Shown: one piece after another, positions 3,992 through 21,107 of the stretch
Layout: each line of letters starts with the position of its first letter
Position numbering within the stretch: position 1 is the stretch's first letter
NCBI GenBank assembly: GCA_902546375.1
Contig: CACCJO010000005.1
Location: 1 to 45,919, forward strand
From: an uncultured Pelagibacteraceae bacterium
GTDB lineage: Bacteria > Pseudomonadota > Alphaproteobacteria > Pelagibacterales > Pelagibacteraceae
Direction of reading: 5' to 3'
DNA length: 45,919 nt
Notes under the pieces: model-generated
Told to the model about the DNA's origin: nothing
The model's input: only the letters and a program-made list of their open reading frames with translations
Database searches by the model: none
Made by a program: the position numbers and the translations under genes

Positions 3992-4042
3992 ATAAATATT
4001 TTTTGTGCTCGAAATATACAACCTATCGTTTAGATTGCAAAA

Positions 4043-4058
4043 TAAAATAATTATTTTA
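4043..4058. terminator. A/T-only 16-base perfect palindrome between ilvC and leuA
   Basis: TAAAATAATTATTTTA is a perfect inverted repeat lying 19 bases after the ilvC stop. In the transcribed direction it is followed by TTTTG. It could act as a weak transcription stop or attenuator between ilvC and leuA, or as a protein-binding site. With only A/T pairs it would be a weak hairpin, and such palindromes occur by chance in very A+T-rich DNA. Confidence 0.25.
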
Positions 4059-4076
4059 GCCCAATTTAATCAATAT

Positions 4077-12043: not shown

Positions 12044-12874
12044 ATGCCAAAGGAAAAACCAGAATTAAGTGACGCAATGAGAGCTAAAATGGGTAGAAAA
12101 CTACCTGATAAAAATCCAATTAAAGGCACTAAGTTTACAATTGCTATTTCAAGTGCAAAAGGCGGTGTTGGAAAATCTACTTTTGCAACAAACTTGGCTT
12201 TAGCTTTAAAAAAAATTGGATGTAGAGTTGGTTTACTGGATGCAGATATCTATGGTCCGTCTATTCCTAAAATGTTGGGAATTGAGGAAAAACCCAAAAG
12301 TGATGGACAAAAATTAGACCCCATTATTAAGTATGATATTCAGTGTATGTCTATTGGTTTCTTAACTGATCAACAAACGCCTATGATTTGGCGGGGACCT
12401 ATGGTGACTAGTGCAATTAGAACTTTCACGCAAAAGGTAAATTGGAAAGATTTAGATTTCATAATTGTTGATATGCCTCCTGGAACTGGAGACACGCAAC
12501 TCACTTTTTCTCAAGAGATAAAGATGGATGGAGCAATCATAGTTTCAACACCACAAGAAGTTGCATTACTAGACGTAAAAAGAGGCATTAAAATGTTTGA
12601 TAAACTAAATGTCAAAATTTTAGGTTTGGTTAACAATATGAGTTATTTTGAAGGTGATGATGGTAAAAAATACAAAATCTTTGGTGATGATAATGTAAAA
12701 AAAACTGCTGAAGAGTTTCAAAAAGAATTTTTGGGAGAAATACCAATCAACCCCGAAGTTGGAAAAAATGGAGATCAGGGAAAACCCATCGTTGAAGCAA
12801 ACTCAGATCACGAAATTTCAAAAATTTATATAAATTTTGCAAAAAAAATTAAATCTAATTATCTCAATTTATAA
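12044..12874 (+). CDS. mrp: Mrp/ApbC (Nbp35-type) P-loop ATPase, iron-sulfur cluster carrier family
   Basis: The 276-residue protein has the deviant Walker A motif KGGVGKS (residues 39-45), LLDADIYGPSIPKMLG, and the DMPPGTGD motif, all typical of Mrp/ApbC proteins that carry Fe-S clusters to target proteins. It lacks the N-terminal MIP18/DUF59 domain of longer homologues, having only about 25 polar residues there. The usual CPxC cluster-binding motif after NMSYF is absent and reads EGDDG instead (residues 203-207). It is transcribed divergently from hflK, and its last 6 bases overlap the convergent VTC-domain gene. Confidence 0.92.
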   Translation: MPKEKPELSDAMRAKMGRKLPDKNPIKGTKFTIAISSAKGGVGKSTFATNLALALKKIGCRVGLLDADIYGPSIPKMLGIEEKPKSDGQKLDPIIKYDIQCMSIGFLTDQQTPMIWRGPMVTSAIRTFTQKVNWKDLDFIIVDMPPGTGDTQLTFSQEIKMDGAIIVSTPQEVALLDVKRGIKMFDKLNVKILGLVNNMSYFEGDDGKKYKIFGDDNVKKTAEEFQKEFLGEIPINPEVGKNGDQGKPIVEANSDHEISKIYINFAKKIKSNYLNL

Positions 12875-13528
12875 GTAATTAGAGATTCCAAATAAATGTA
12901 AACCTCTTAAATATTTACTAAATCTTTTAGGGTTAAAATTAGAATTTTGAATTAAATTTAATGCTAAACTTGTATTTTCTGGTTCAAATTTTATTTCAAT
13001 AACATTCATGAAATCTTTCATTGTATTTTTTTTTAAAGAATGTTTATTTATTAACTTATAACTTATTTTACGATCGTAGGTGATCCTAATTTTTTTTTGA
13101 TACACAAAATATGATCTTAAATAACTTACATTCATTTTTGGTATAAGATTTTTATAGCTAAAGTAATTCAAAAAAAATTCATTCTCTTTCTTTTTAAGGA
13201 AATCATTTTTATTAGAAAATAAAAGATTAAAATCTAGCAAACTATGATCAGATTTTAAAAAAAGTTTTTTACCTAAATTATTTTTTTTTATCTTTATTTC
13301 ATAATTAAAATTTTTGGATTCATCGTTGTACCACCTGATTCTATACTTGCACCTGTTAGAAATTCCAGCAAGATTGTCTTTGGCAGTAGTAAAATTTTCA
13401 CTATCATAATAGATACTAGTAATTAATCTATCATCATATTGTTTTTGTATTTTACTTTTGAAGTTAACCCAATTATCAAAATATAATTCAAAATTATTGT
13501 TTATTGGGATTTTGATTTCACTTCGCAT
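12869..13528 (-). CDS. VTC-domain protein, predicted polyphosphate polymerase
   Basis: The 219-residue protein matches the VTC/triphosphate-tunnel fold that in yeast Vtc4 makes polyphosphate from ATP. Visible tunnel-type residues include Arg59, Lys61, Arg63 and Arg65 (SNRCKYRIRWY), Glu77 and Lys79 (YEIKIKK), Tyr136/Arg138 (VSYLRSYF), Arg148/Asp152 (IRITYDRKI), Glu178/Lys180 (VIEIKFE) and the late Ser204-Lys205-Tyr206 (SKYLRGL). There is no SPX domain and no membrane segment, so it is probably cytoplasmic. It is the last gene of a three-gene unit with CotH and DUF4956 (gap of 8 bases), and its end overlaps mrp by 6 bases. The catalytic activity is inferred from family and motif, not shown. Confidence 0.85.
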   Translation of the reverse strand: MRSEIKIPINNNFELYFDNWVNFKSKIQKQYDDRLITSIYYDSENFTTAKDNLAGISNRCKYRIRWYNDESKNFNYEIKIKKNNLGKKLFLKSDHSLLDFNLLFSNKNDFLKKKENEFFLNYFSYKNLIPKMNVSYLRSYFVYQKKIRITYDRKISYKLINKHSLKKNTMKDFMNVIEIKFEPENTSLALNLIQNSNFNPKRFSKYLRGLHLFGISNYL

Positions 13529-13536
13529 ATAAAAGC

Positions 13537-16197
13537 TTAATTATAAAGTTTTTTTATATCTATAACTTTTCCTCTAACTTTTTTACCATCTAAAATTAAA
13601 TCACTTCCTATTTGGACCAAGGGCAAACCACATGATGAAAATTGATCAATTTTTAAGTTGGCCCCAGAAAAATAAGATTTTTTTTGATAAACAGCAAAAT
13701 CATATGAATTACAGTTTGAAATTTTGATATTATTTCCATAAACATTGCTTGAGTCTTTACTTGCAATACCCATACCAGATGATGAGACCTCTAAATTATT
13801 AATCTTGAGATTTGTTTGTTCACCAGCTGAGATTGCTTTATCAAAAATATTTTTTGCATTTATATCCTTAAGATAAACATTCGAACCAGAAAGATCTATT
13901 GCGTCTCCACCAACTTTGTCAAAAAGAGTTTTTTTAATTTCTCCATTTCCAAAATCGATATCAATTGCATCAGAAATAGTGTTGGTAATTTCAGATGATA
14001 AAACTTTGAATTCTGATTTTACAAAATTAATTGCATCCTCGGACATTGAATTGTTGATAATACTATTAGAAATTACAACATTCGATTTTATGAAATTTAA
14101 CCCACCCGTTAATTGTATCTTTCCACTATCGAAATAAGAAAAATTTGAAATATTAACATAATTTAAAATAGAAGAGCTATTATTACTTAAGTCTGAATTT
14201 ACATAGATACCTTTCCAATTTTCCTTAGAATTTAATGATGAAATCTTAATAGGATAATTTTCAGTTCCATTCATTTTTATTGATCCATCTTTTAGTAAAA
14301 TATAAGAATCTTTAGACATTCTAAGAGTTGATCCTTTTTTTATAATTAAGTTATACCCATTTGGAACTATGATTGGATTATCAATAATATGTACTCCACC
14401 ATCTAAAATATAGTTCTTACCCATAATGTTAATTTTAGGATCCTTTTTATAACTAACATCATTTAAAAATTTATCATTTTTAAATCTATTATTTTCTATT
14501 CTTTCTTTTACAGAATTTTGTCTATTTAATTGATCTAAATATCTTATCTCTAAAAAATCATAGTCTTTATTTTCTAAATCAAAATTAATCTTTTTCGAAC
14601 TTAAATTTTCATAAGTACTAGGGTTCAAAATCAAATTTGAATCACTAATTTCAATTATCTTCTTACAATTTTTTTTACATTGTGAAACATCCTCTAAAAT
14701 TAGTTTATCTAAACGTAAAATTTCACTAGTTAAATTACTCAAAAAAATCTCTCCATCATCAAAAGCTCGAAAATGTATTTTTTTATCATTTAAATTTTTA
14801 ATATTCTGTGTATTGAAATTTTTATTTTTTATCTTTTCATTACTATTAGAAAAATTTTGAAAAATATTATTTTTTTCACTAATAATGAAGTTAATATTTT
14901 GCTTAATAAGTTCTAGATCAACTAAATTTTGACAATTTTTTCCAAAATTTTGACATGCTAATTCAAATTTTTTTTCAATTTTTTCAAAATTATTTTTATA
15001 CTCATTTACTACTTGAAAATATTTTTTTTGAAAATCCCTTGTAGGAAAAAGATTTTTATAAAGAATATTAAAATTATTCATAAATTTTTTAATTTCTTTT
15101 TGACTTGCTATATTTGAATGAGTTGTGTCAGTTAAAATTGGTTCTATTTTGAGATCATAAGGGTTGATATAATATCTTGAGTTAGTTGGCAATCTACTGT
15201 GGTAATCACCAAATATGGATGTTATTGCTACTATTTTTGCCATTAAATCTACATCCAAATGATCTTTTATTTTTTCATAATATTTTTCGTTTTCAACCAC
15301 AACTACTTCTTGAATATTTTTAAAAGCACTTAATAAATTTAAATTTGTTTTTTGATCAGGAATGTTAGTTTTCTTTAAAATTCTTTTTTTATTATAAACT
15401 TTAGTCTCTAATTTACCTTGCCATTTAATTATATCATCTAAATTTTCTAATTTTTGGTTAGCTATAATTCTTATGGTAAAATCATTTTCATTTGTCATTT
15501 TAAGTATTGGTGCCTCTTTTAATTGATTGTGAGCATAAAAAGAGTCTGAAAACTGTTCTTCTAAAAGCATTAATCCCCAGTTTTCTCCGTTAAAGTTAAC
15601 TCCAACTGTCTCATACCTTGGAGACAAGATTTTATTTTCTCTAAGAATATCAGAAATAACAAAATTATAGGGAAAATCTCTCTCAGTAAAAACAGAAATT
15701 GAAAATTCATTAAAGCCTAAAATAGTTTTGTTTTTATTTAACTTAATTCTTAAACTCCATTGTTTTATATTTCCCCAATGTTCTGATAAATCCCCTTTAA
15801 GTCTTGCTGTAGCTTTGTACTTTTTGCCTTGAAACAATAAATTAATTTTTACTTTTTGAGGGTTGATCAACTTTTTTAAGTAAAGAGCTTTATTTCTATC
15901 TTTTTTTAATTTCTCTAATTCTGAAAAATTGATGTCAATTTTTATATTTTCAAATTCATTTTTTTTTGAAAATTTATTCTCAATTCCATGAAATAATTTT
16001 ACTGAATAATCAATTATTCTATTTTGATAAACAGGTTTTGATTTTAAAAGTACCGGTTGGTATAATAAAATTCTTAAAGATTGTTCTAAATCTCCTTTTA
16101 AACCAGGTGTAATTTTTAGTAAAAATAATAGAAAAATAATAAAAAGGGCCAATAAAAAAAGAGGGATATTATTTTTTTTTTGTTTAAAAATTAACAA
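13537..16197 (-). CDS. CotH-like kinase domain fused to a C-terminal beta-helix, membrane anchored
   Basis: The 886-residue protein has one N-terminal membrane helix (about 11-29), then a CotH-type domain (about 115-400) and a right-handed beta-helix-like region (about 590-870) made of short repeating strands. CotH features visible are RLKGD (132-136), SLRIKLN (148-154), GLMLLEEQ (208-215), GDYHS followed by NSRYYINP (330-346) and EPILTDTTH with Asp357. CotH of Bacillus is an atypical protein kinase. The topology suggests that kinase and helix lie outside the cytoplasmic membrane. The only start at the right place is TTG at 16197, 5 bases after the DUF4956 stop, so the exact start is uncertain. 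It lies between DUF4956 and the VTC gene. The substrate is unknown. Confidence 0.82.
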   Translation of the reverse strand: MLIFKQKKNNIPLFLLALFIIFLLFLLKITPGLKGDLEQSLRILLYQPVLLKSKPVYQNRIIDYSVKLFHGIENKFSKKNEFENIKIDINFSELEKLKKDRNKALYLKKLINPQKVKINLLFQGKKYKATARLKGDLSEHWGNIKQWSLRIKLNKNKTILGFNEFSISVFTERDFPYNFVISDILRENKILSPRYETVGVNFNGENWGLMLLEEQFSDSFYAHNQLKEAPILKMTNENDFTIRIIANQKLENLDDIIKWQGKLETKVYNKKRILKKTNIPDQKTNLNLLSAFKNIQEVVVVENEKYYEKIKDHLDVDLMAKIVAITSIFGDYHSRLPTNSRYYINPYDLKIEPILTDTTHSNIASQKEIKKFMNNFNILYKNLFPTRDFQKKYFQVVNEYKNNFEKIEKKFELACQNFGKNCQNLVDLELIKQNINFIISEKNNIFQNFSNSNEKIKNKNFNTQNIKNLNDKKIHFRAFDDGEIFLSNLTSEILRLDKLILEDVSQCKKNCKKIIEISDSNLILNPSTYENLSSKKINFDLENKDYDFLEIRYLDQLNRQNSVKERIENNRFKNDKFLNDVSYKKDPKINIMGKNYILDGGVHIIDNPIIVPNGYNLIIKKGSTLRMSKDSYILLKDGSIKMNGTENYPIKISSLNSKENWKGIYVNSDLSNNSSSILNYVNISNFSYFDSGKIQLTGGLNFIKSNVVISNSIINNSMSEDAINFVKSEFKVLSSEITNTISDAIDIDFGNGEIKKTLFDKVGGDAIDLSGSNVYLKDINAKNIFDKAISAGEQTNLKINNLEVSSSGMGIASKDSSNVYGNNIKISNCNSYDFAVYQKKSYFSGANLKIDQFSSCGLPLVQIGSDLILDGKKVRGKVIDIKKLYN

Positions 16198-16202
16198 TTT
16201 GC

Positions 16203-16886
16203 TTAATCTACAATTTTATTTTCATAAAAAGAATAATCTAAATTATCGAATTCTTTATTTAAAGTATCCATTAAAAGCTTAATATTTTTTTCATTTCCAA
16301 ATGAAACTTTATAGTAAAGGGTGATATTATTTTTTTCTTTTTCAATTTTTGCTAAATTCGCTTCTAGACAATTTTTTTTAAGATGTTCTAAAATTTTGTC
16401 AAAATAATCTTGATTTTTACCTAAATCACATTCTATTATTAAATTAAAATCATTTATAATCACACTTTTTCTGCTGGATAAAAAGAACCAAATAATCAAG
16501 ATTAAGATTAAAAAAATAATACTTGTTGAATAAATTTGAAGTGCTCCATACCCAATACCAATAGCTATGGCAAAAAATAAAAAAGCTAAATCTTCAGGTT
16601 CTTTAACTGGAGTTCTAAATCTAATCACTGATAAAGCCCCAACTAAACCAAGTGACAATGCTAATGATGATTTAACAATCAAAATTACCAAAAATGTGAT
16701 GTTACTTAAAAGTGGAATTATTGCTGAAATTTGAATTTTTGAAGATAAGGAATTGGACTTACTTTTGTAAACATACATTAATATAAATGAAGAAATGATA
16801 CAAAAAAATAAACTTAATATAACTATTAGATAATCTGTTTCCCCAACAGTCTCTAAAGATCTAGATAGTTTATTTGTAATCTCCAT
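16203..16886 (-). CDS. DUF4956 membrane protein
   Basis: The 227-residue protein has about four hydrophobic segments in its first 145 residues and a soluble C-terminal domain of about 80 residues with an alternating strand/helix pattern. The conserved DUF4956 signature is clear: LGLVGALSVIRFRTPVKEPE followed by LAFLFFAIAIGIGYG. DUF4956 genes are frequently neighbours of VTC-domain and CotH genes in bacteria, as here. It is the first gene of this unit and lies 33 bases after thyX. Its biochemical role is not known; a transporter or membrane platform for the VTC polymerase is only a guess. Confidence 0.88.
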   Translation of the reverse strand: MEITNKLSRSLETVGETDYLIVILSLFFCIISSFILMYVYKSKSNSLSSKIQISAIIPLLSNITFLVILIVKSSLALSLGLVGALSVIRFRTPVKEPEDLAFLFFAIAIGIGYGALQIYSTSIIFLILILIIWFFLSSRKSVIINDFNLIIECDLGKNQDYFDKILEHLKKNCLEANLAKIEKEKNNITLYYKVSFGNEKNIKLLMDTLNKEFDNLDYSFYENKIVD

Positions 16887-16919: not shown

Positions 16920-17867
16920 CTAAATTATTTTTTCTTTTAAATCAAAGGCTTCCATCAATTCATTCCATTCTCTCTTAGATAAATCTGAGGTTTCTATTGA
17001 AACTTCTTCACCTTTAATTAGCTTTTGAAGAATATGTTTTCCTTTGGATGATACTTCAGTTCCACCTACTCTATAATCCATGAAAGCCTCATAGGTAACG
17101 GGCACCCATTTTTTTAAGGTGTCTAGCATAATATCTGCGTAAACTCTTATTTCGTATTGTGCATGATGATCTGCTCTTAGTCTTAGAAAATTCATTAAAT
17201 TTAATAAATCAGTTTTCCAATACCATTGAGTGTAGGTGTTTAAAGTTAAATTCATTCTGGCAAGCTCTCTTGCTAAACCTTTTTTACTTTCATCTACAGT
17301 GGATCCATCATATTTTTCGTTAAGCATCGCTTCATAGTTTGCATATGTTCTCTCAGCATCGTTCTTTAAAATTGCTAAAACTTCTTTTGCTTGTTTACCC
17401 TCCAATACATCACCTCTACCCTGTCTATTAGATGTTGATTGAGCAGCAAGATTCTCTTGGGAAGGTAAATAAAATTCTTTATCTAAAATTGAATATCTTG
17501 CAGAATATTCGTTAACATTAGCTGTTCGATGTCTAATCCACTGACGAGCAATAAATATTGGTAATTTTATATGATATTTAATTTCACACATTTCAAATGG
17601 AGTACTATGCCAATGACGCATTAAATATTTTATAAGACCAGCATCTGTTGAAACTTGTTTTGTGCCTTTGCCATAAGAAACTCTAGCTGATTGAACGATT
17701 GATGTATCATCACCCATGTAATCTACAACTCTTACAAATCCATGATCAAGAGCAGGTATTGCTTCATAGAGAATATGTTCTAGCTCAGGGGCTGTTACTC
17801 TTTTTGTTGAATTTTGTTGAGATTGCTGATTCTTAATATCTGCTAATTGTTCTTTAGTTAATTTCAT
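16920..17867 (-). CDS. thyX: Flavin-dependent thymidylate synthase
   Basis: ThyX makes dTMP from dUMP using methylenetetrahydrofolate, FAD and NADPH. The 315-residue protein carries the family signature [15 protein letters not shown] at residues 112-126 (RHRxxSxNExSxR type) and C-terminal [13 protein letters not shown] with the dUMP-contacting residues. It is longer than the roughly 220-250 residues of many ThyX proteins because of N- and C-terminal additions, which is common in alphaproteobacteria. No thyA is seen in the window. It is transcribed divergently from the glycosyltransferase gene at 17953. Confidence 0.96.
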
Positions 17868-17952: not shown

Positions 17953-18639
17953 ATGAAACTCAGTGTTATAATGCCCTGCTATAATGAAGAAAATACTATA
18001 AGTAGAATTTTAGATAAAATTTTAAACGAGAATTCTATTGGTAAAGAAATAATTGTAATTGATGATTTTTCAACTGATAATTCTCGAAAAATTTTAGAAA
18101 ATTATGACAAAAAGGGTAAAATTAAGTTAGTTTTTAACTCTAAAAATAGAGGAAAAGGTTATTCAGTTAGACAAGGATTAAAATTAGCAAGTGGCGACAT
18201 CATATTAATTCAAGATGCTGATCTTGAATATAGCCCTGATGATTATAAAAGATTAATTAACCCAATTTTAAATGATGACGCTGACGTTGTATATGGATCA
18301 AGGTTTATTGGTGGACAAGAGACCAGGGTTTTATACTTTTGGCATACTTTAGGTAACAAGTTTCTCACTTTACTTAGTAATATGTTCACTAATTTAAATC
18401 TAACTGATATGGAGTGTTGTTACAAAGTTTTTAAAAAAGACATCATAAAAGATATAAATTTAAAAGAAGACAGATTTGGATTTGAGCCAGAAATTACTGC
18501 TAAAATCTCAAAAAAAAATTTAAAAATTTATGAAGTAGGTGTTAGATATTTTGGAAGAAAATATGAAGATGGTAAAAAAATAACTTGGAAAGATGGTTTC
18601 GCAGCTATTTTTTGCATCATTTATTACAATTTATTTTGA
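17953..18639 (+). CDS. Family 2 glycosyltransferase, dolichyl-phosphate mannose synthase-like
   Basis: The 228-residue protein has the GT-A fold with SVIMPCYNEENTI at the start, IDDFSTDNS (nucleotide-sugar binding), GKGYSVRQGLKLASGDI and the metal-binding DADLEYSP (DxD), all typical of DPM1-like polyprenyl-phosphate glycosyltransferases. It lacks C-terminal membrane helices. It probably loads a sugar from a nucleotide sugar onto a polyprenyl phosphate carrier. The convergent neighbour is a GT-C-like membrane protein, which could use such a carrier-bound sugar. The two genes overlap tail to tail by 16 bases. Confidence 0.88.
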   Translation: MKLSVIMPCYNEENTISRILDKILNENSIGKEIIVIDDFSTDNSRKILENYDKKGKIKLVFNSKNRGKGYSVRQGLKLASGDIILIQDADLEYSPDDYKRLINPILNDDADVVYGSRFIGGQETRVLYFWHTLGNKFLTLLSNMFTNLNLTDMECCYKVFKKDIIKDINLKEDRFGFEPEITAKISKKNLKIYEVGVRYFGRKYEDGKKITWKDGFAAIFCIIYYNLF

Positions 18640-19982
18640 AAAAAAATTTTTTTCAATTGCACTAAACCGTTGCCAAAAAATACAGATAAAAAAATGAGGG
18701 AAGGCATAAAATATCTCGAATTTCCAACCCAGCCTAAAATAAAAACAAAATATAAAACTAAAATTAAAATTAACAAATGAAAATTAATTTTAAATTTATT
18801 TGTAAAAATTTTAATTAAACCTAAAGCTATAATTGAATATACAATCAAACTGTATAAAAGCTTAAAGTAAAAATAATTTTGAGCTTCTTCACTTAAATGA
18901 AATTCTTTATTTTTATAAAGTTTATCATTGTATTTGTGCCAATAAAAAGTTTGAAGGGGGTTTAAAACTAAATGTGACAATGAATTTTTAAAATAAATTT
19001 TAATTGTTTTAATCTTATTATCCAACATAATTTGGATTGCCTGATCTTGAAGGAAGTTTGAATATTCATAATTCGATTTAAAATTATCTTCATTATAATA
19101 ATTTTCAATTTTCCATTTTTCCTCTTCTTTTTTTAGTTTTATTATACTTCCCTCATTTTCTTTAACGATTCTTTTTGCTATATAATGATAGTGTGCAGTT
19201 TTAGTTTGTGTTGGCATTATATATAAAATTCCAGTTTTTTTATAGTTATCTAATGTTAAGAAACTTAAAACTATAATAAAACCAGCAAATAATATTAAAT
19301 TATTTAATATCTTTTTTTCTTTTTCATCGAAAATTAAGTAGATAACAACAAAAAAAATTAAAAAAATCGCGACAGTTTTCTGCAAAAAAGTAATACCTAA
19401 TAAAATACCAATAACAAAAAAATTTTTATAAGATTTTTTTTCATTTATAATCAAACCCAATAAAACTAGTTGAAGTGAAAAAAAAATAGACTCTGTCCAA
19501 AATGTACTATGCCATTGAACAATATTAGGATCTAATGCGAGAAAACCTACAGTAAATAAGCTTAAATTTTCATCTTTGTAATATTTAACAAGTTTATTGT
19601 AAAAAAATATTAGCGAGCTGTAAAAAATAATTATTTGAAAAAAAAGAAACTTAAATTTACCCCCAATTGAAACAATTTTTTTTTCATAGTCTTGATAAAA
19701 TTTCTCATCAAAGATCAAATAAAATATTGATAAAATTTTAGATGGTAAAAAAGTTCTGGTATATTCTTTACCTGCACCTAATATTTTATGATTTTCAATT
19801 AAATCCTCTTTAAATTCGTGGGATTCTTTCCAAATTAAATTTATGTCTCCTCTGACCATCAAGTGTTCATTGAGATTTTGATTTTTATCGAAATATTTTA
19901 AGTTGAATAAAGAATATAAAATCGAAAAAGTTATACCTAAAGTAATAATTATAATTAGAGCTTTATTTGACTTAGTTGTCAT
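18624..19982 (-). CDS. Multi-spanning membrane protein, GT-C (GT39/ArnT-like) glycosyltransferase candidate
   Basis: The 452-residue protein has about nine or ten hydrophobic segments. The first is followed by a polar loop with an acidic pair candidate (VRGDINLIWKESHEFKED) where GT-C enzymes carry their catalytic acid, and later loops contain FLALDPNIVQWHSTFWTES, a pattern seen in GT39/PMT-like proteins near the donor site. I do not recognise a specific family member. Being next to a polyprenyl-phosphate sugar synthase supports a role in transferring a lipid-linked sugar outside the membrane, for example to lipid A, protein or glycan. This remains inference. Confidence 0.65.
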   Translation of the reverse strand: MTTKSNKALIIIITLGITFSILYSLFNLKYFDKNQNLNEHLMVRGDINLIWKESHEFKEDLIENHKILGAGKEYTRTFLPSKILSIFYLIFDEKFYQDYEKKIVSIGGKFKFLFFQIIIFYSSLIFFYNKLVKYYKDENLSLFTVGFLALDPNIVQWHSTFWTESIFFSLQLVLLGLIINEKKSYKNFFVIGILLGITFLQKTVAIFLIFFVVIYLIFDEKEKKILNNLILFAGFIIVLSFLTLDNYKKTGILYIMPTQTKTAHYHYIAKRIVKENEGSIIKLKKEEEKWKIENYYNEDNFKSNYEYSNFLQDQAIQIMLDNKIKTIKIYFKNSLSHLVLNPLQTFYWHKYNDKLYKNKEFHLSEEAQNYFYFKLLYSLIVYSIIALGLIKIFTNKFKINFHLLILILVLYFVFILGWVGNSRYFMPSLIFLSVFFGNGLVQLKKIFFQNKL

Positions 19983-19995
19983 CCAATTTATATAA

Positions 19996-20023
19996 TTGAT
20001 AGTTACATAAAATTTAATATATT
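19996..20023 (+). promoter_or_regulatory. Candidate promoter of the tmRNA gene
   Basis: TTGATA (19996-20001) and TATATT (20018-20023) are 16 bases apart on the plus strand, and transcription would begin near 20030, just before the acceptor part of the permuted tmRNA. The upstream neighbour reads the other way, so the tmRNA needs a promoter in this 60-base space. Confidence 0.4.
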
Positions 20024-20029
20024 AATACT

Positions 20030-20042
20030 GTTGATTATCAAC
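20030..20042 (+). repeat. 13-base inverted repeat at the 5' end of the pre-tmRNA
   Basis: GTTGATTATCAAC is a perfect inverted repeat (6-base arms, 1 central base) between the predicted transcription start and the P2 strand of the acceptor piece. It may be a 5' leader hairpin that is trimmed during processing, or a binding site. Confidence 0.3.
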
Positions 20043-20045
20043 TAT

Positions 20046-20340
20046 GACGATAAACGAATTTCGTAATAACCATTGCGGACGTGGGGGCAGTACCCACCAC
20101 CTCCACCACAAACATATTATGGGGGTGAACTAGATTCGACGAGTGACTAAAGGCTATTCTTTCGTTCGGAATTGTTCCTCCGTAAAGGGCTAATTTATAA
20201 TTGCTAACGAAAGTTACGCACTTGCTGCTTAATTAACATTGTTAATTATGCAGACGGGGTTTGGGGCACCTGGCAACAGAACGCCCCTTCCTAACTAATG
20301 CTTCGCTTGGTTTTAGATATTAATTAATATTTGGATTTAA
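20046..20340 (+). ncRNA. ssrA: Transfer-messenger RNA, circularly permuted two-piece alphaproteobacterial form
   Basis: tmRNA rescues stalled ribosomes and tags the unfinished protein. Here the acceptor piece comes first: a P2 strand, the GGACGTGGGGGCAGTACCCA T-arm, then CACCTCCACCA ending at 20108. After a spacer of only 12 bases (20109-20120) the coding piece begins GGGGGTGAACTAGATTCGAC at 20121. The acceptor stem pairs GGGGGTG with CACCTCC (one G-U). P2 is supported by GGCTATT/AATAACC (one mismatch) and a perfect TTCGTT/AACGAA match. The tag frame at 20203-20232 encodes ANESYALAA and a TAA stop, followed by a perfect 7-base-pair hairpin (20231-20247) and a pseudoknot-type GGGGC/GCCCC pairing. 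Both outer ends are approximate. Confidence 0.93.
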
Positions 20341-20360
20341 TTAGACGATATTTGGTAGTA

Positions 20361-20380
20361 AAGTTTAGTAAATTAAACTT
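20361..20380 (+). other. 7-base-pair hairpin downstream of tmRNA
   Basis: AAGTTTA and TAAACTT (arms at 20361-20367 and 20374-20380) form a perfect stem around a 6-base loop in the 3' trailer of the tmRNA transcript. It may guide 3' processing or support the terminator that follows. Confidence 0.4.
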
Positions 20381-20383
20381 ATT

Positions 20384-20408
20384 AATCATATTATGATTAT
20401 TTTTTTTT
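20384..20408 (+). terminator. Putative intrinsic terminator of tmRNA, overlapping the methyltransferase 3' end
   Basis: AATCATA and TATGATT form an inverted repeat immediately followed by A and a run of nine T residues on the plus strand. The T run lies inside the last codons of the minus-strand methyltransferase gene (stop at 20397), where it encodes lysines. The stem is A/T rich and its loop tight, so termination strength is uncertain. Confidence 0.55.
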
Positions 20409-21107
20409 CCCAAAAAATGTGAAGTGGTGTCCACTTTCTTTAGTGCTGGTTAATGATCCACTATAATGACCAATTTTTAATGGTTTAAATAATCTAAATT
20501 TATTTTTTAAATCTTTTTCACTTTTCGTAAAATTTATATAATGATGATAAATATTTTGTTTTTGTCTTTTTTTATAATTTTTATCTGAACTTAAATTTAC
20601 TTTATGAAGTCCATTATTACTTTTTCTTTTATCACAAAAATGTTTGTAATATTCATGTTTAGTACCCATCATTGAAAAATAAACATAACCACCTGGTTTT
20701 AACATTTTATTAAAACTTATTAATCTATTTTTTAAATCTATATCATTTAGATAATACAAAACTTGCCACGATATTATTAAATCGAATTTTTTTTTAAAAA
20801 AATCATCATTTTGATTAACATCAAAATCAATCAATTTAAATTTTTTTTTATTTATTTTTTTTTGACAATTTTTTATACTTGGTTTGGATATATCAACACC
20901 ATATCCATCATATCCATGTTTTTTAATTAGATAATGAATATTTGACCCCTCTCCACATCCATAATCTAAAACTTTTAATTTTTTTTTTGAGTTGATAAAT
21001 AAATTAAGTAATTTTGGTTTTAATCTAAAAATAAAACTTTCTACGTTAGGGGCGTAATATACCCTATTCCAAAATTTTTCATTAATTTTTTTGTAATTAT
21101 TTTCCAT
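20397..21107 (-). CDS. Class I SAM-dependent methyltransferase, substrate unknown
   Basis: The 236-residue protein has a Rossmann-type methyltransferase domain with motif I VLDYGCGEGSNIHYL (about residues 45-59), an acidic motif II end YGVDIS, the LIISWQVLYYLND motif and KPGGYVYFSM. The C-terminal 80 residues are basic and rich in Lys/His/Tyr and do not suggest a substrate. It stands alone between the tmRNA and a pyrophosphohydrolase gene, with 183 bases upstream in which I see no gene or RNA. Small-molecule or sugar methylation is possible. Confidence 0.8.
   Translation of the reverse strand: MENNYKKINEKFWNRVYYAPNVESFIFRLKPKLLNLFINSKKKLKVLDYGCGEGSNIHYLIKKHGYDGYGVDISKPSIKNCQKKINKKKFKLIDFDVNQNDDFFKKKFDLIISWQVLYYLNDIDLKNRLISFNKMLKPGGYVYFSMMGTKHEYYKHFCDKRKSNNGLHKVNLSSDKNYKKRQKQNIYHHYINFTKSEKDLKNKFRLFKPLKIGHYSGSLTSTKESGHHFTFFGKKK

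What the first reader, a model, noticed from the sequence alone, without database searches (positions are those of the whole stretch)
12869..16886. Three-gene DUF4956 / CotH-beta-helix / VTC cassette: a possible polyphosphate-linked surface kinase system
Seen: three tightly packed minus-strand genes (gaps of 5 and 8 bases) encoding a DUF4956 membrane protein, a membrane-anchored CotH-like kinase fused to a long beta-helix, and a stand-alone VTC domain that keeps most basic and acidic tunnel residues. Known: VTC domains make polyphosphate in yeast, CotH is an atypical kinase of spore coat proteins, and these families recur as neighbours in bacteria with no settled function. Inference: cytoplasmic VTC makes polyphosphate, DUF4956 couples it to the membrane, and CotH phosphorylates or modifies an exported target held by its beta-helix. 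Such a system in a minimal, phosphate-limited marine genome, kept despite gene loss, is striking.
Basis: partly seen in the sequence, partly recalled or inferred. Interest (0 to 1): 0.8.

Follow-up and report, generated by a model that had tools for sequence, protein, structure and literature searches.

The report
Mobile polyphosphate–surface protein gene trio
A three-gene unit that sits at different genome sites in relatives of a tiny ocean bacterium pairs a likely polyphosphate-making enzyme and its membrane partner with a large exported protein built from a kinase-like fold and a polysaccharide-enzyme fold, and may put phosphate chemistry on the cell surface.

Summary
In detail: at 12869-16886 (minus strand) lie VTC, CotH-fold/beta-helix and DUF4956 genes, 8 and 5 bases apart. 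In the genus VTC occurs in 27 of 151 genomes sampled, always with the other two where the contig reaches. It is not retained by descent: the trio fills the thyX/mrp junction exactly, which is closed in 12 of 22 relatives checked; other relatives carry a diverged trio between leuA and ilvC, a site empty here. Similar trios occur in many phyla, mostly without PelG (found in 1 of 35 tested, 0 of 27 in the genus), although a 2025 paper reports the arrangement only in Pel loci. VTC keeps the Vtc4 tunnel residues. The CotH domain has the CotH fold but His at catalytic Asp228, so 'kinase' is doubtful. New link: a pyrophosphatase with a signal-like N-terminus lies in, beside or fused to the cassette in 5 genus genomes and one Campylobacterales MAG. 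Best reading: VTC-DUF4956 makes polyphosphate and feeds it to the membrane; the exported proteins use or process it at a surface glycan. Polyphosphate synthesis here, its export and the substrate remain inference.

The parts
12869..13528 (-). VTC-family polyphosphate polymerase (triphosphate tunnel fold), stand-alone, 219 aa, no TM segment by hydropathy
   Evidence: Pfam VTC E 1e-25; profile A4 vs yeast Vtc4 3g3q E 1.4e-22; R2, K6, Y40, K61, R63, R65, E77, K79, K88, Y136, R138, R148, D152, E178, K180, K205 invariant in the 52 aligned; no TM segment
13537..16197 (-). Membrane-anchored/exported CotH-fold protein fused to a right-handed beta-helix, 886 aa; N-terminal TM about residues 11-29, CotH domain about 84-380, low-confidence linker, helix about 590-860
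   Evidence: Profile match to B. cereus CotH E 1.9e-15; Foldseek 5jd9 E 4.6e-10; beta-helix vs AlgG Z 26.9; TM 11-29; Asp228 site is His333, Asp251 site is Asp357
16203..16886 (-). DUF4956 membrane protein, 227 aa: helical membrane part with an invariant GALS-x-x-RFR motif plus a ferredoxin-like (ACT/PII-like) C-terminal domain
   Evidence: Pfam DUF4956 E 8.6e-16; model pLDDT 84.8; C-terminal 145-227 ferredoxin-like, e.g. SpoT 7qpr Z 9.3 rmsd 2.6 79 aligned, tied with ribosomal S6 and others; ACT of Rel by sequence E 0.0021; invariant G83 A84 L85 S86 R89 F90 R91 in the 47 aligned
16920..17867 (-). thyX-like flank (same strand, 33 bases upstream of DUF4956); right border of the insertion; not part of the cassette. 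Name read from the sequence; no family search was run on it
   Evidence: Directly abuts mrp in 12 of the 22 relatives in which mrp was found
12044..12874 (+). mrp-like flank; left border of the insertion; not part of the cassette (name read from the sequence, no family search run)
   Evidence: its last 6 bases overlap the end of the VTC gene
4022..4076 (.). Empty second site between leuA and ilvC, where relatives G009, G012 and G118 carry their own diverged trio
   Evidence: leuA/ilvC identified by Pfam on L048 and by tblastn from the window genes

Best explanation
The trio is a horizontally exchanged cell-surface cassette. The cytosolic VTC protein polymerises phosphate from ATP into polyphosphate; DUF4956 docks it to the inner membrane, regulates it through its ACT/PII-like domain, and probably passes the chain to or across the membrane, as the TM part of the eukaryotic VTC complex does. 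On the outer side the membrane-anchored CotH-fold/beta-helix protein acts on a surface glycan, using or binding the phosphate polymer; because its Asp228 is replaced, it is more likely a diverged phosphate-handling or binding domain than a classical protein kinase. Where a pyrophosphatase with a signal-like N-terminus is present, it removes pyrophosphate or short-chain end products. Shown: the three families, VTC tunnel residues, co-inheritance, changing genome sites, CotH and AlgG-like folds, loss of Asp228, PPase linkage. Inferred: polyphosphate synthesis in this organism, translocation, export of the PPase (N-terminus read by eye), the glycan substrate, and the chemistry of the CotH domain.
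For: VTC aligns over the whole tunnel with yeast Vtc4 (E 1.4e-22); R63, R65 and E178 fall on chain residues 267, 269 and 429 of 5iiq, i.e. R264, R266 and E426 with a constant offset of 3, the residues changed to inactivate Vtc4 (PMC9911596, passages). DUF4956 is in the cassette in 18 of 18 genus loci whose contig reaches that far, beside VTC in 9 of 9 other loci examined and within 6 kb of VTC in 73 of 80 loci. Two alphaproteobacterial loci are DUF4956-VTC-PHO4 phosphate transporter. Distances of VTC, DUF4956 and CotH correlate (Mantel r 0.88, 0.88, 0.94; 0 of 2000 shuffles each; 18 loci). PF00719 PPase: separate gene within or beside the trio in G012, G066, G061 and fused to the CotH-beta-helix protein in G155 and G067; these 5 are the convincing hits of the 6 found in 151 genus genomes, all 5 among the 27 VTC genomes (hypergeometric 1.3e-4, if both calls drew the same 151); also in a Campylobacterales MAG, next to DUF4956. 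DGD-x-x-D, D-x4-D-x-K and YK motifs present in 6 of 6 (their catalytic role recalled). In Bacillota, trios sit with a chitin-synthase-like GT2 (17 of 80 loci); EAL/GGDEF and MBOAT plus AlgX neighbours were seen in the representatives scanned; the helix fold is that of alginate epimerase AlgG.
Against: No enzymatic or localisation data for any member here. The matches listed for DUF4956 cover mostly its C-terminal domain, so a channel role is analogy only. The window genome has PPK1, so VTC is not its only polyphosphate route, and no PPase of this kind was found in it (genome 72% complete). In S. intermedius the DUF4956 and CotH mutants, but in the passages I saw not the VTC mutant, are named with reduced Pel and aggregation (PMC12345266). 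Four of 80 loci have DUF4956 and CotH without VTC within 6 kb, three neither. The CotH-helix model is only moderate (pLDDT 60.3). In two of the 9 other loci the DUF4956 call by my profile is weak (E about 0.001-0.002).
Confidence: 0.45

Rival explanations
1. Accessory/regulatory module for an exopolysaccharide synthase: the trio tunes or modifies a polysaccharide made by a separate synthase (Pel, chitin-synthase-like GT2 and so on); polyphosphate is a signal or by-product.
For: Published Pel linkage in streptococci, clostridia, bifidobacteria (PMC7112168, passages) and mutant phenotypes on Pel output (PMC12345266, passages); GT2 in 17 of 80 loci, MBOAT and AlgX neighbours; AlgG-like helix.
Against: In G000 the insertion at thyX/mrp is the trio alone, with no synthase inside; PelG in 0 of 27 VTC genomes of the genus and 1 of 35 genomes tested elsewhere (only PelG searched, many genomes incomplete); DUF4956-VTC also occurs without CotH.
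Confidence: 0.25
2. One reading: polyphosphate polymerase plus an active CotH protein kinase that phosphorylates an exported protein target held by the beta-helix.
For: CotH fold and Asp251-site aspartate kept (Asp357; Asp in 21 of 22 genus and 11 of 14 other beta-helix forms).
Against: Asp228 site is His in 18 of 22 genus sequences including the window; no fourth gene in the insertion as a target; no ATP is expected in the periplasm (general knowledge).
Confidence: 0.12
3. VTC-DUF4956 is simply a regulated phosphate-storage polymerase, and CotH-beta-helix is an unrelated surface adhesin carried along.
For: DUF4956-VTC occurs without CotH (12 of 80) and with a PHO4 phosphate transporter (2 of 9 non-genus loci).
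Against: In the genus VTC was not seen without CotH and/or its helix where the contig allows (26 of 26); the three co-vary; PPase fused to the CotH-helix protein itself ties it to phosphate chemistry.
Confidence: 0.12
4. The VTC domain is not a polymerase but a phosphate-polymer hydrolase or sensor of the wider triphosphate-tunnel superfamily.
For: Tunnel enzymes include triphosphatases (general knowledge); I saw no biochemical test of a bacterial member in the passages read.
Against: Profile matches VTC specifically and aligns along the full Vtc4 tunnel; partner architecture mirrors VTC (catalytic plus membrane part).
Confidence: 0.06

Closest known systems
cotH / polyphosphate polymerase / DUF4956 accessory set of Gram-positive Pel loci (PMC7112168; S. 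intermedius SIR_1592-1594, PMC12345266; passages seen)
   Same: Same three families as neighbours; secreted CotH, membrane protein with ACT domain, polyphosphate polymerase domain
   Different: No PelG here (0 of 27); CotH lacks Asp228 and is fused to a beta-helix instead of FN3; three-gene unit at changing sites; PPase in relatives
Eukaryotic VTC complex (Vtc4 catalytic domain plus membrane channel; PMC9911596, passages)
   Same: Catalytic tunnel residues; polymerase paired with a membrane subunit that has conserved basic residues
   Different: VTC domain only, no SPX; membrane partner is DUF4956 (relation to Vtc1 not found, not excluded); ACT/PII-like domain instead of inositol-pyrophosphate sensing; inner membrane instead of vacuole
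Bacillus CotH spore-coat kinase (5jd9)
   Same: Fold and Asp251 site
   Different: Asp228 to His; extra conserved His140; beta-helix fusion; membrane anchor; not a sporulating organism (inference)
AlgG-type periplasmic polysaccharide epimerase/lyase beta-helices
   Same: Fold (Z 26.9) and presumed exported location
   Different: About 14% identity; own invariant set (D743, D746, D768, K814, S817); epimerase residues not tested
Acidocalcisomal soluble pyrophosphatase (PDB 5cuu and others, name from PDB)
   Same: Homologous PPase (E 2.4e-12 for the L058 enzyme); by analogy on the far side of the membrane from VTC's catalytic domain (its organism and role recalled)
   Different: Only in relatives' cassettes, not in the window; the closest solved relatives by score are ordinary soluble PPases (5ls0, E 9.3e-18)

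Membership tests
VTC polyphosphate polymerase | Pfam VTC match over curated cut-off | tested here: met
   91.1 bits vs 23
VTC polyphosphate polymerase | Basic tunnel and metal-site residues | tested here: met
   Invariant set; 15 of 16 identical in Vtc4 in the alignment; R264/R266/E426 named as catalytic in PMC9911596
VTC polyphosphate polymerase | ATP-dependent polyphosphate synthesis | not testable with these tools
   needs purified protein
Eukaryotic-type VTC complex | SPX domain and VTC TM domain in the subunits | tested here: not met
   219 aa, VTC domain over residues 22-211, no TM segment
CotH kinase | Pfam CotH match for the protein itself | tested here: not met
   0 families for the window protein; 3 of 19 relatives match
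CotH kinase | CotH fold / homology by profile | tested here: met
   5jd9 E 1.9e-15 by profile, E 4.6e-10 by Foldseek
CotH kinase | Catalytic Asp228 | tested here: not met
   His333 in the window; H 18, A 2, Q 1, D 1 of 22 genus sequences (the D is L043, cut before any helix); D in 53 of 53 without beta-helix (2 of 91 rows dropped for gaps). In 9 of 14 non-genus beta-helix forms an Asp lies one or two residues on and may substitute
CotH kinase | Catalytic Asp251 | tested here: met
   Asp357
DUF4956 (PF16316) | Pfam match over cut-off | tested here: met
   58.6 bits vs 30.6
DUF4956 (PF16316) | Membrane helices plus C-terminal ACT-like domain | tested here: met
   the structural matches fit any ferredoxin-like fold, ACT rests on E 0.0021 by sequence
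Pel-locus accessory set | Contiguity with pelDEADAFG | tested here: not met
   PelG not found in G000 (72% complete) nor in any of 27 VTC genomes incl. one 100% complete; no other Pel family searched
AlgG-type epimerase | Catalytic epimerase residues | not tested
   only the fold was compared

The most novel reading that the evidence does not exclude
A bacterial counterpart of the acidocalcisome: polyphosphate made in the cytosol by VTC is threaded through DUF4956 to the periplasm, where it serves as an ATP-free phosphoryl donor for a CotH-fold transferase acting on a surface glycan held by the beta-helix, and an exported pyrophosphatase pulls the reaction by destroying the PPi end product. 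It would answer how extracytoplasmic kinase-like enzymes get a phosphate donor where there is no ATP.
Probability: 0.18. Interest if true: 0.88.

Novelty: new variant of a known kind. Interest (0 to 1): 0.62.

Why it matters
The trio is already tied to biofilm polysaccharide in streptococci, yet in the papers I saw the joint role of the polymerase, DUF4956 and CotH is open. This genus offers a three-gene form without PelG, so the core function can be tested alone. A pyrophosphatase with a signal-like N-terminus, inside, beside or fused to the cassette, is genomic evidence that its phosphoanhydride chemistry reaches the outside of the inner membrane. Occurrence without PelG goes against what a 2025 paper reports and widens the question to many phyla. 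Diverged trios at different sites in genomes whose flanking genes are 97-100% identical mark it as a fast-exchanged, probably surface, trait in what I infer to be SAR11, among the most abundant ocean bacteria (recalled).

Tried and rejected
Chance or mis-called ORFs: rejected by family scores and conservation. Pel association here: rejected by PelG search (PelF and other Pel families not searched). VTC as the only polyphosphate route in the window genome: rejected, PPK1 present (PP_kinase in 6 of 21 genomes searched), although the complete genome G012 has the trio and no PP_kinase match. Pho-box control: 2 sites in the window at up to 3 mismatches against 2.78 expected, none at the trio. Reading H333 as an alignment slip: considered; the context T-x-N-F-[H]-G or close to it in several genus members against T-Q-N-F-[D]-G in 5jd9 argues against it there, but in other beta-helix CotHs a nearby Asp may take over, and the window has Asp331 two residues before; the model is poor at 330-339. 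DUF4956 membrane fold: no solved relative of it was seen among the listed matches; that is not evidence of a new fold. MgtC relation of DUF4956: E 0.0077, below cut-off, for one homologue. A sixth PPase hit, in G103 (E 9.9e-4), was dropped because the longest reading frames of its + strand show no PPase by eye. The Fisher value for Asp228 ignores relatedness and is not used. The sub-cut-off VTC hit in G328 was not examined. loci are the best 80 of at least 588 and were found with ten DUF4956 sequences that all come from loci with CotH, so the 61 of 80 figure is biased upwards. For one search I chose 35 of the 80 loci (34 with all three families within 6 kb, plus L086, whose contig begins inside the helix protein); their completeness is not told. 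Literature: (SAR11, Pelagibacter, CotH, VTC domain; at least 3) listed one Roseobacter paper, not opened; (bacterial VTC, VTC-like, periplasmic pyrophosphatase, polyphosphate polymerase, exopolysaccharide; at least 2) listed one microalgal review, not opened. So I found nothing on this trio in SAR11 or on an exported PPase with VTC, in an open library that lacks most subscription papers.
Full report
What is there. Three minus-strand genes, 12869-13528, 13537-16197 and 16203-16886, separated by 8 and 5 bases, encode a VTC-domain protein (Pfam E 1e-25), a protein without Pfam match of its own, and a DUF4956 protein (E 8.6e-16). The middle protein is a CotH-fold domain with an N-terminal membrane anchor, fused to a beta-helix: a 19-member profile hits B. 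cereus CotH at E 1.9e-15, the model hits it at E 4.6e-10, and its C-terminal third superposes on alginate epimerase AlgG with Z 26.9, rmsd 3.2 over 276 residues. The model is moderate (mean pLDDT 60.3; most of the helix 72-96). The host is an AT-rich 0.86 Mb, 72% complete genome; that it is SAR11 is my inference, no tool named it.

A unit. VTC occurs in 27 of 151 genus genomes sampled, the window's own included, against 8 of 396 other genomes sampled in the phylum, 7 of them over the cut-off. I fetched stretches for all 27 genomes (28 loci with the window; G149 has two). CotH and/or its helix is beside VTC in 26 of 28 and DUF4956 is in the cassette in 18 of 28; all the missing ones are cut by a contig end. 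Layout varies: DUF-VTC-CotH in L043, VTC on the other strand in L064, an extra gene in L039. Pairwise distances of the three proteins correlate strongly over the 18 complete loci (Mantel r 0.88, 0.88, 0.94; 0 of 2000 shuffles each).

Mobile, not retained. Of 28 genus genomes searched for mrp, 22 had it. In 12 of these thyX abuts mrp (overlap or at most 27 bases), including four (G012, G019, G061, G118) that carry the trio elsewhere. G083 has a gap of about 0.8 kb, and nine showed no thyX in the stretch held (one stretch, L169, is cut short); among these nine is G073, which carries a trio at this very site. In the window the junction is filled by exactly the three genes. Three relatives (G009, G012, G118) hold a trio between leuA and ilvC, and G019 and G020 show one of these flanks; the two genes are 55 bases apart in the window. 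G118's leuA, mreB and ilvC are 97, 100 and 98% identical to the window's, but its CotH and VTC are only 25% and 24% identical. So genomes with near-identical flanks carry different trios at different sites: horizontal exchange of a diversifying trait. This contradicts 'kept despite gene loss'.

Beyond the genus. I looked at 9 VTC loci from 7 genomes outside the genus, all those over the cut-off; each has DUF4956 next door by my profile, two of them weakly (E about 0.001-0.002). Two have CotH by my profiles and a third (L076) has a CotH that Pfam finds; two are DUF4956-VTC-PHO4 phosphate transporter. A DUF4956 scan of species genomes gave 80 loci (best of at least 588; all ten seeds from CotH-bearing loci, so biased) from many phyla: VTC within 6 kb in 73, CotH in 65, both in 61, neither in 3. 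PelG was not found in any of the 27 VTC genomes of the genus and was found in 1 of 35 genomes chosen from the 80 loci (Peribacillus, within about 6 kb of its trio by the coordinates); only PelG was searched and many genomes are incomplete. The S. intermedius paper says its analyses fail to find this arrangement of the three genes outside Pel (PMC12345266, passages; I did not see how wide its search was); these results show it elsewhere. In Bacillota a chitin-synthase-like GT2 follows in 17 of 80 loci, much as in the C. perfringens table of PMC2879425 (passages).

The polymerase. In 52 aligned VTC proteins 16 columns are invariant; in the alignment to yeast Vtc4 (E 1.4e-22) 15 of them are identical and one (K61) is not. 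R264, R266 and E426 were changed to inactivate Vtc4 (PMC9911596, passages); with a constant numbering offset of 3 in the 5iiq alignment they fall on R63, R65 and E178. DUF4956's model has helices in the membrane part and a ferredoxin-like C-terminal domain, ACT-like by sequence. Its invariant RFR motif (47 aligned) could play the part of the basic ring of the yeast channel; that is analogy.

The CotH domain. CotH D228Q is inactive and D251A also (PMC7821199, passages). The Asp228 column is Asp in 53 of 53 CotH proteins without beta-helix, but His 18, Ala 2, Gln 1, Asp 1 of 22 in the genus (the Asp is L043, whose contig ends before a helix) and His 9, Gln 3, Asn 1, Arg 1 of 14 in other beta-helix forms; 2 of 91 rows were dropped for gaps. 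The Asp251 column stays Asp in 21 of 22 and 11 of 14. In 9 of those 14 an Asp one or two residues later may substitute; in the genus 5 of 22 have an Asp at or within two residues of the site, the window (Asp331) among them. Beta-helix forms also share a His at 140 (18 of 20 and 14 of 14 with a residue there). Of nine residues identical in all 21 genus proteins showing both parts, seven lie in the helix (D743, D765, D768, D786, K787, D815, S817), though some of the 21 are cut at the N-terminus. I therefore treat it as a separate subfamily whose kinase activity must not be assumed.

The pyrophosphatase. An inorganic pyrophosphatase with a hydrophobic, signal-like N-terminus (read by eye, no predictor) lies between CotH and VTC in L049 and L058 and next to DUF4956 in L046, and a PPase domain is fused to the C-terminus of the CotH-helix protein in L059 (N-terminus off the contig) and L062. 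Searching 151 genus genomes with one of them gives these 5 and one hit I dropped; all 5 are VTC genomes. A Campylobacterales MAG has helix-VTC-DUF4956-PPase, the last with a signal-like start and overlapping DUF4956 as called. The expected PPase motifs are there in 6 of 6, but the G012 copy is shorter and its extended match holds stop codons, so it may be truncated. None was found in the window genome. This is the best genomic pointer that phosphoanhydride chemistry reaches the periplasm; the PDB holds related enzymes named acidocalcisomal pyrophosphatase, acidocalcisomes being where kinetoplastid VTC deposits polyphosphate (start of abstract and passages of PMC13375126, which speak of a membrane-bound, not this soluble, PPase).

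Verdict. What I did not see in the papers: the PelG-free, mobile three-gene form in this genus, the beta-helix CotH subfamily without Asp228, and the pyrophosphatase. What remains unproved: polyphosphate synthesis by this protein, its passage through DUF4956, and the substrate.

Noticed in passing
L082 6023-9012 and L084 7121-10272: DUF4956-VTC followed by a PHO4 phosphate transporter in two alphaproteobacterial genomes, a layout that points to phosphate homeostasis without CotH.
   Followed up: partly
L086 3-3460: Campylobacterales MAG with beta-helix, VTC, DUF4956 and a pyrophosphatase with signal-like start in one run, next to genes that read as sugar-nucleotide enzymes.
   Followed up: partly
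window 4022-4076 and 12869-16886: The window holds both an occupied (thyX/mrp) and an empty (leuA/ilvC) cassette site about 9 kb apart.
   Followed up: yes
L043 5299-7485: A C-type-lectin domain plus autotransporter beta-domain protein lies upstream of a DUF4956-VTC-CotH locus.
   Followed up: no
L053 2456-3358: A calcineurin-like phosphoesterase with a hydrophobic N-terminus abuts VTC in one genus locus, another phosphate enzyme near the spot where others have the pyrophosphatase.
   Followed up: no
L076 6415-7566 and L085 2272-3339: HlyD-type export adaptors next to VTC-DUF4956.
   Followed up: no
L108 11422-14128: MBOAT plus AlgX-type acetyltransferase behind VTC-DUF4956-CotH in a Lachnospiraceae MAG; four loci of this kind by clustering, one scanned.
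   Followed up: no
window 17953-21107: GT2, PMT_2-type glycosyltransferase and methyltransferase genes directly beyond thyX; relatives of the GT2 occur near the trio in 7 of 28 genus loci, the window included.
   Followed up: partly
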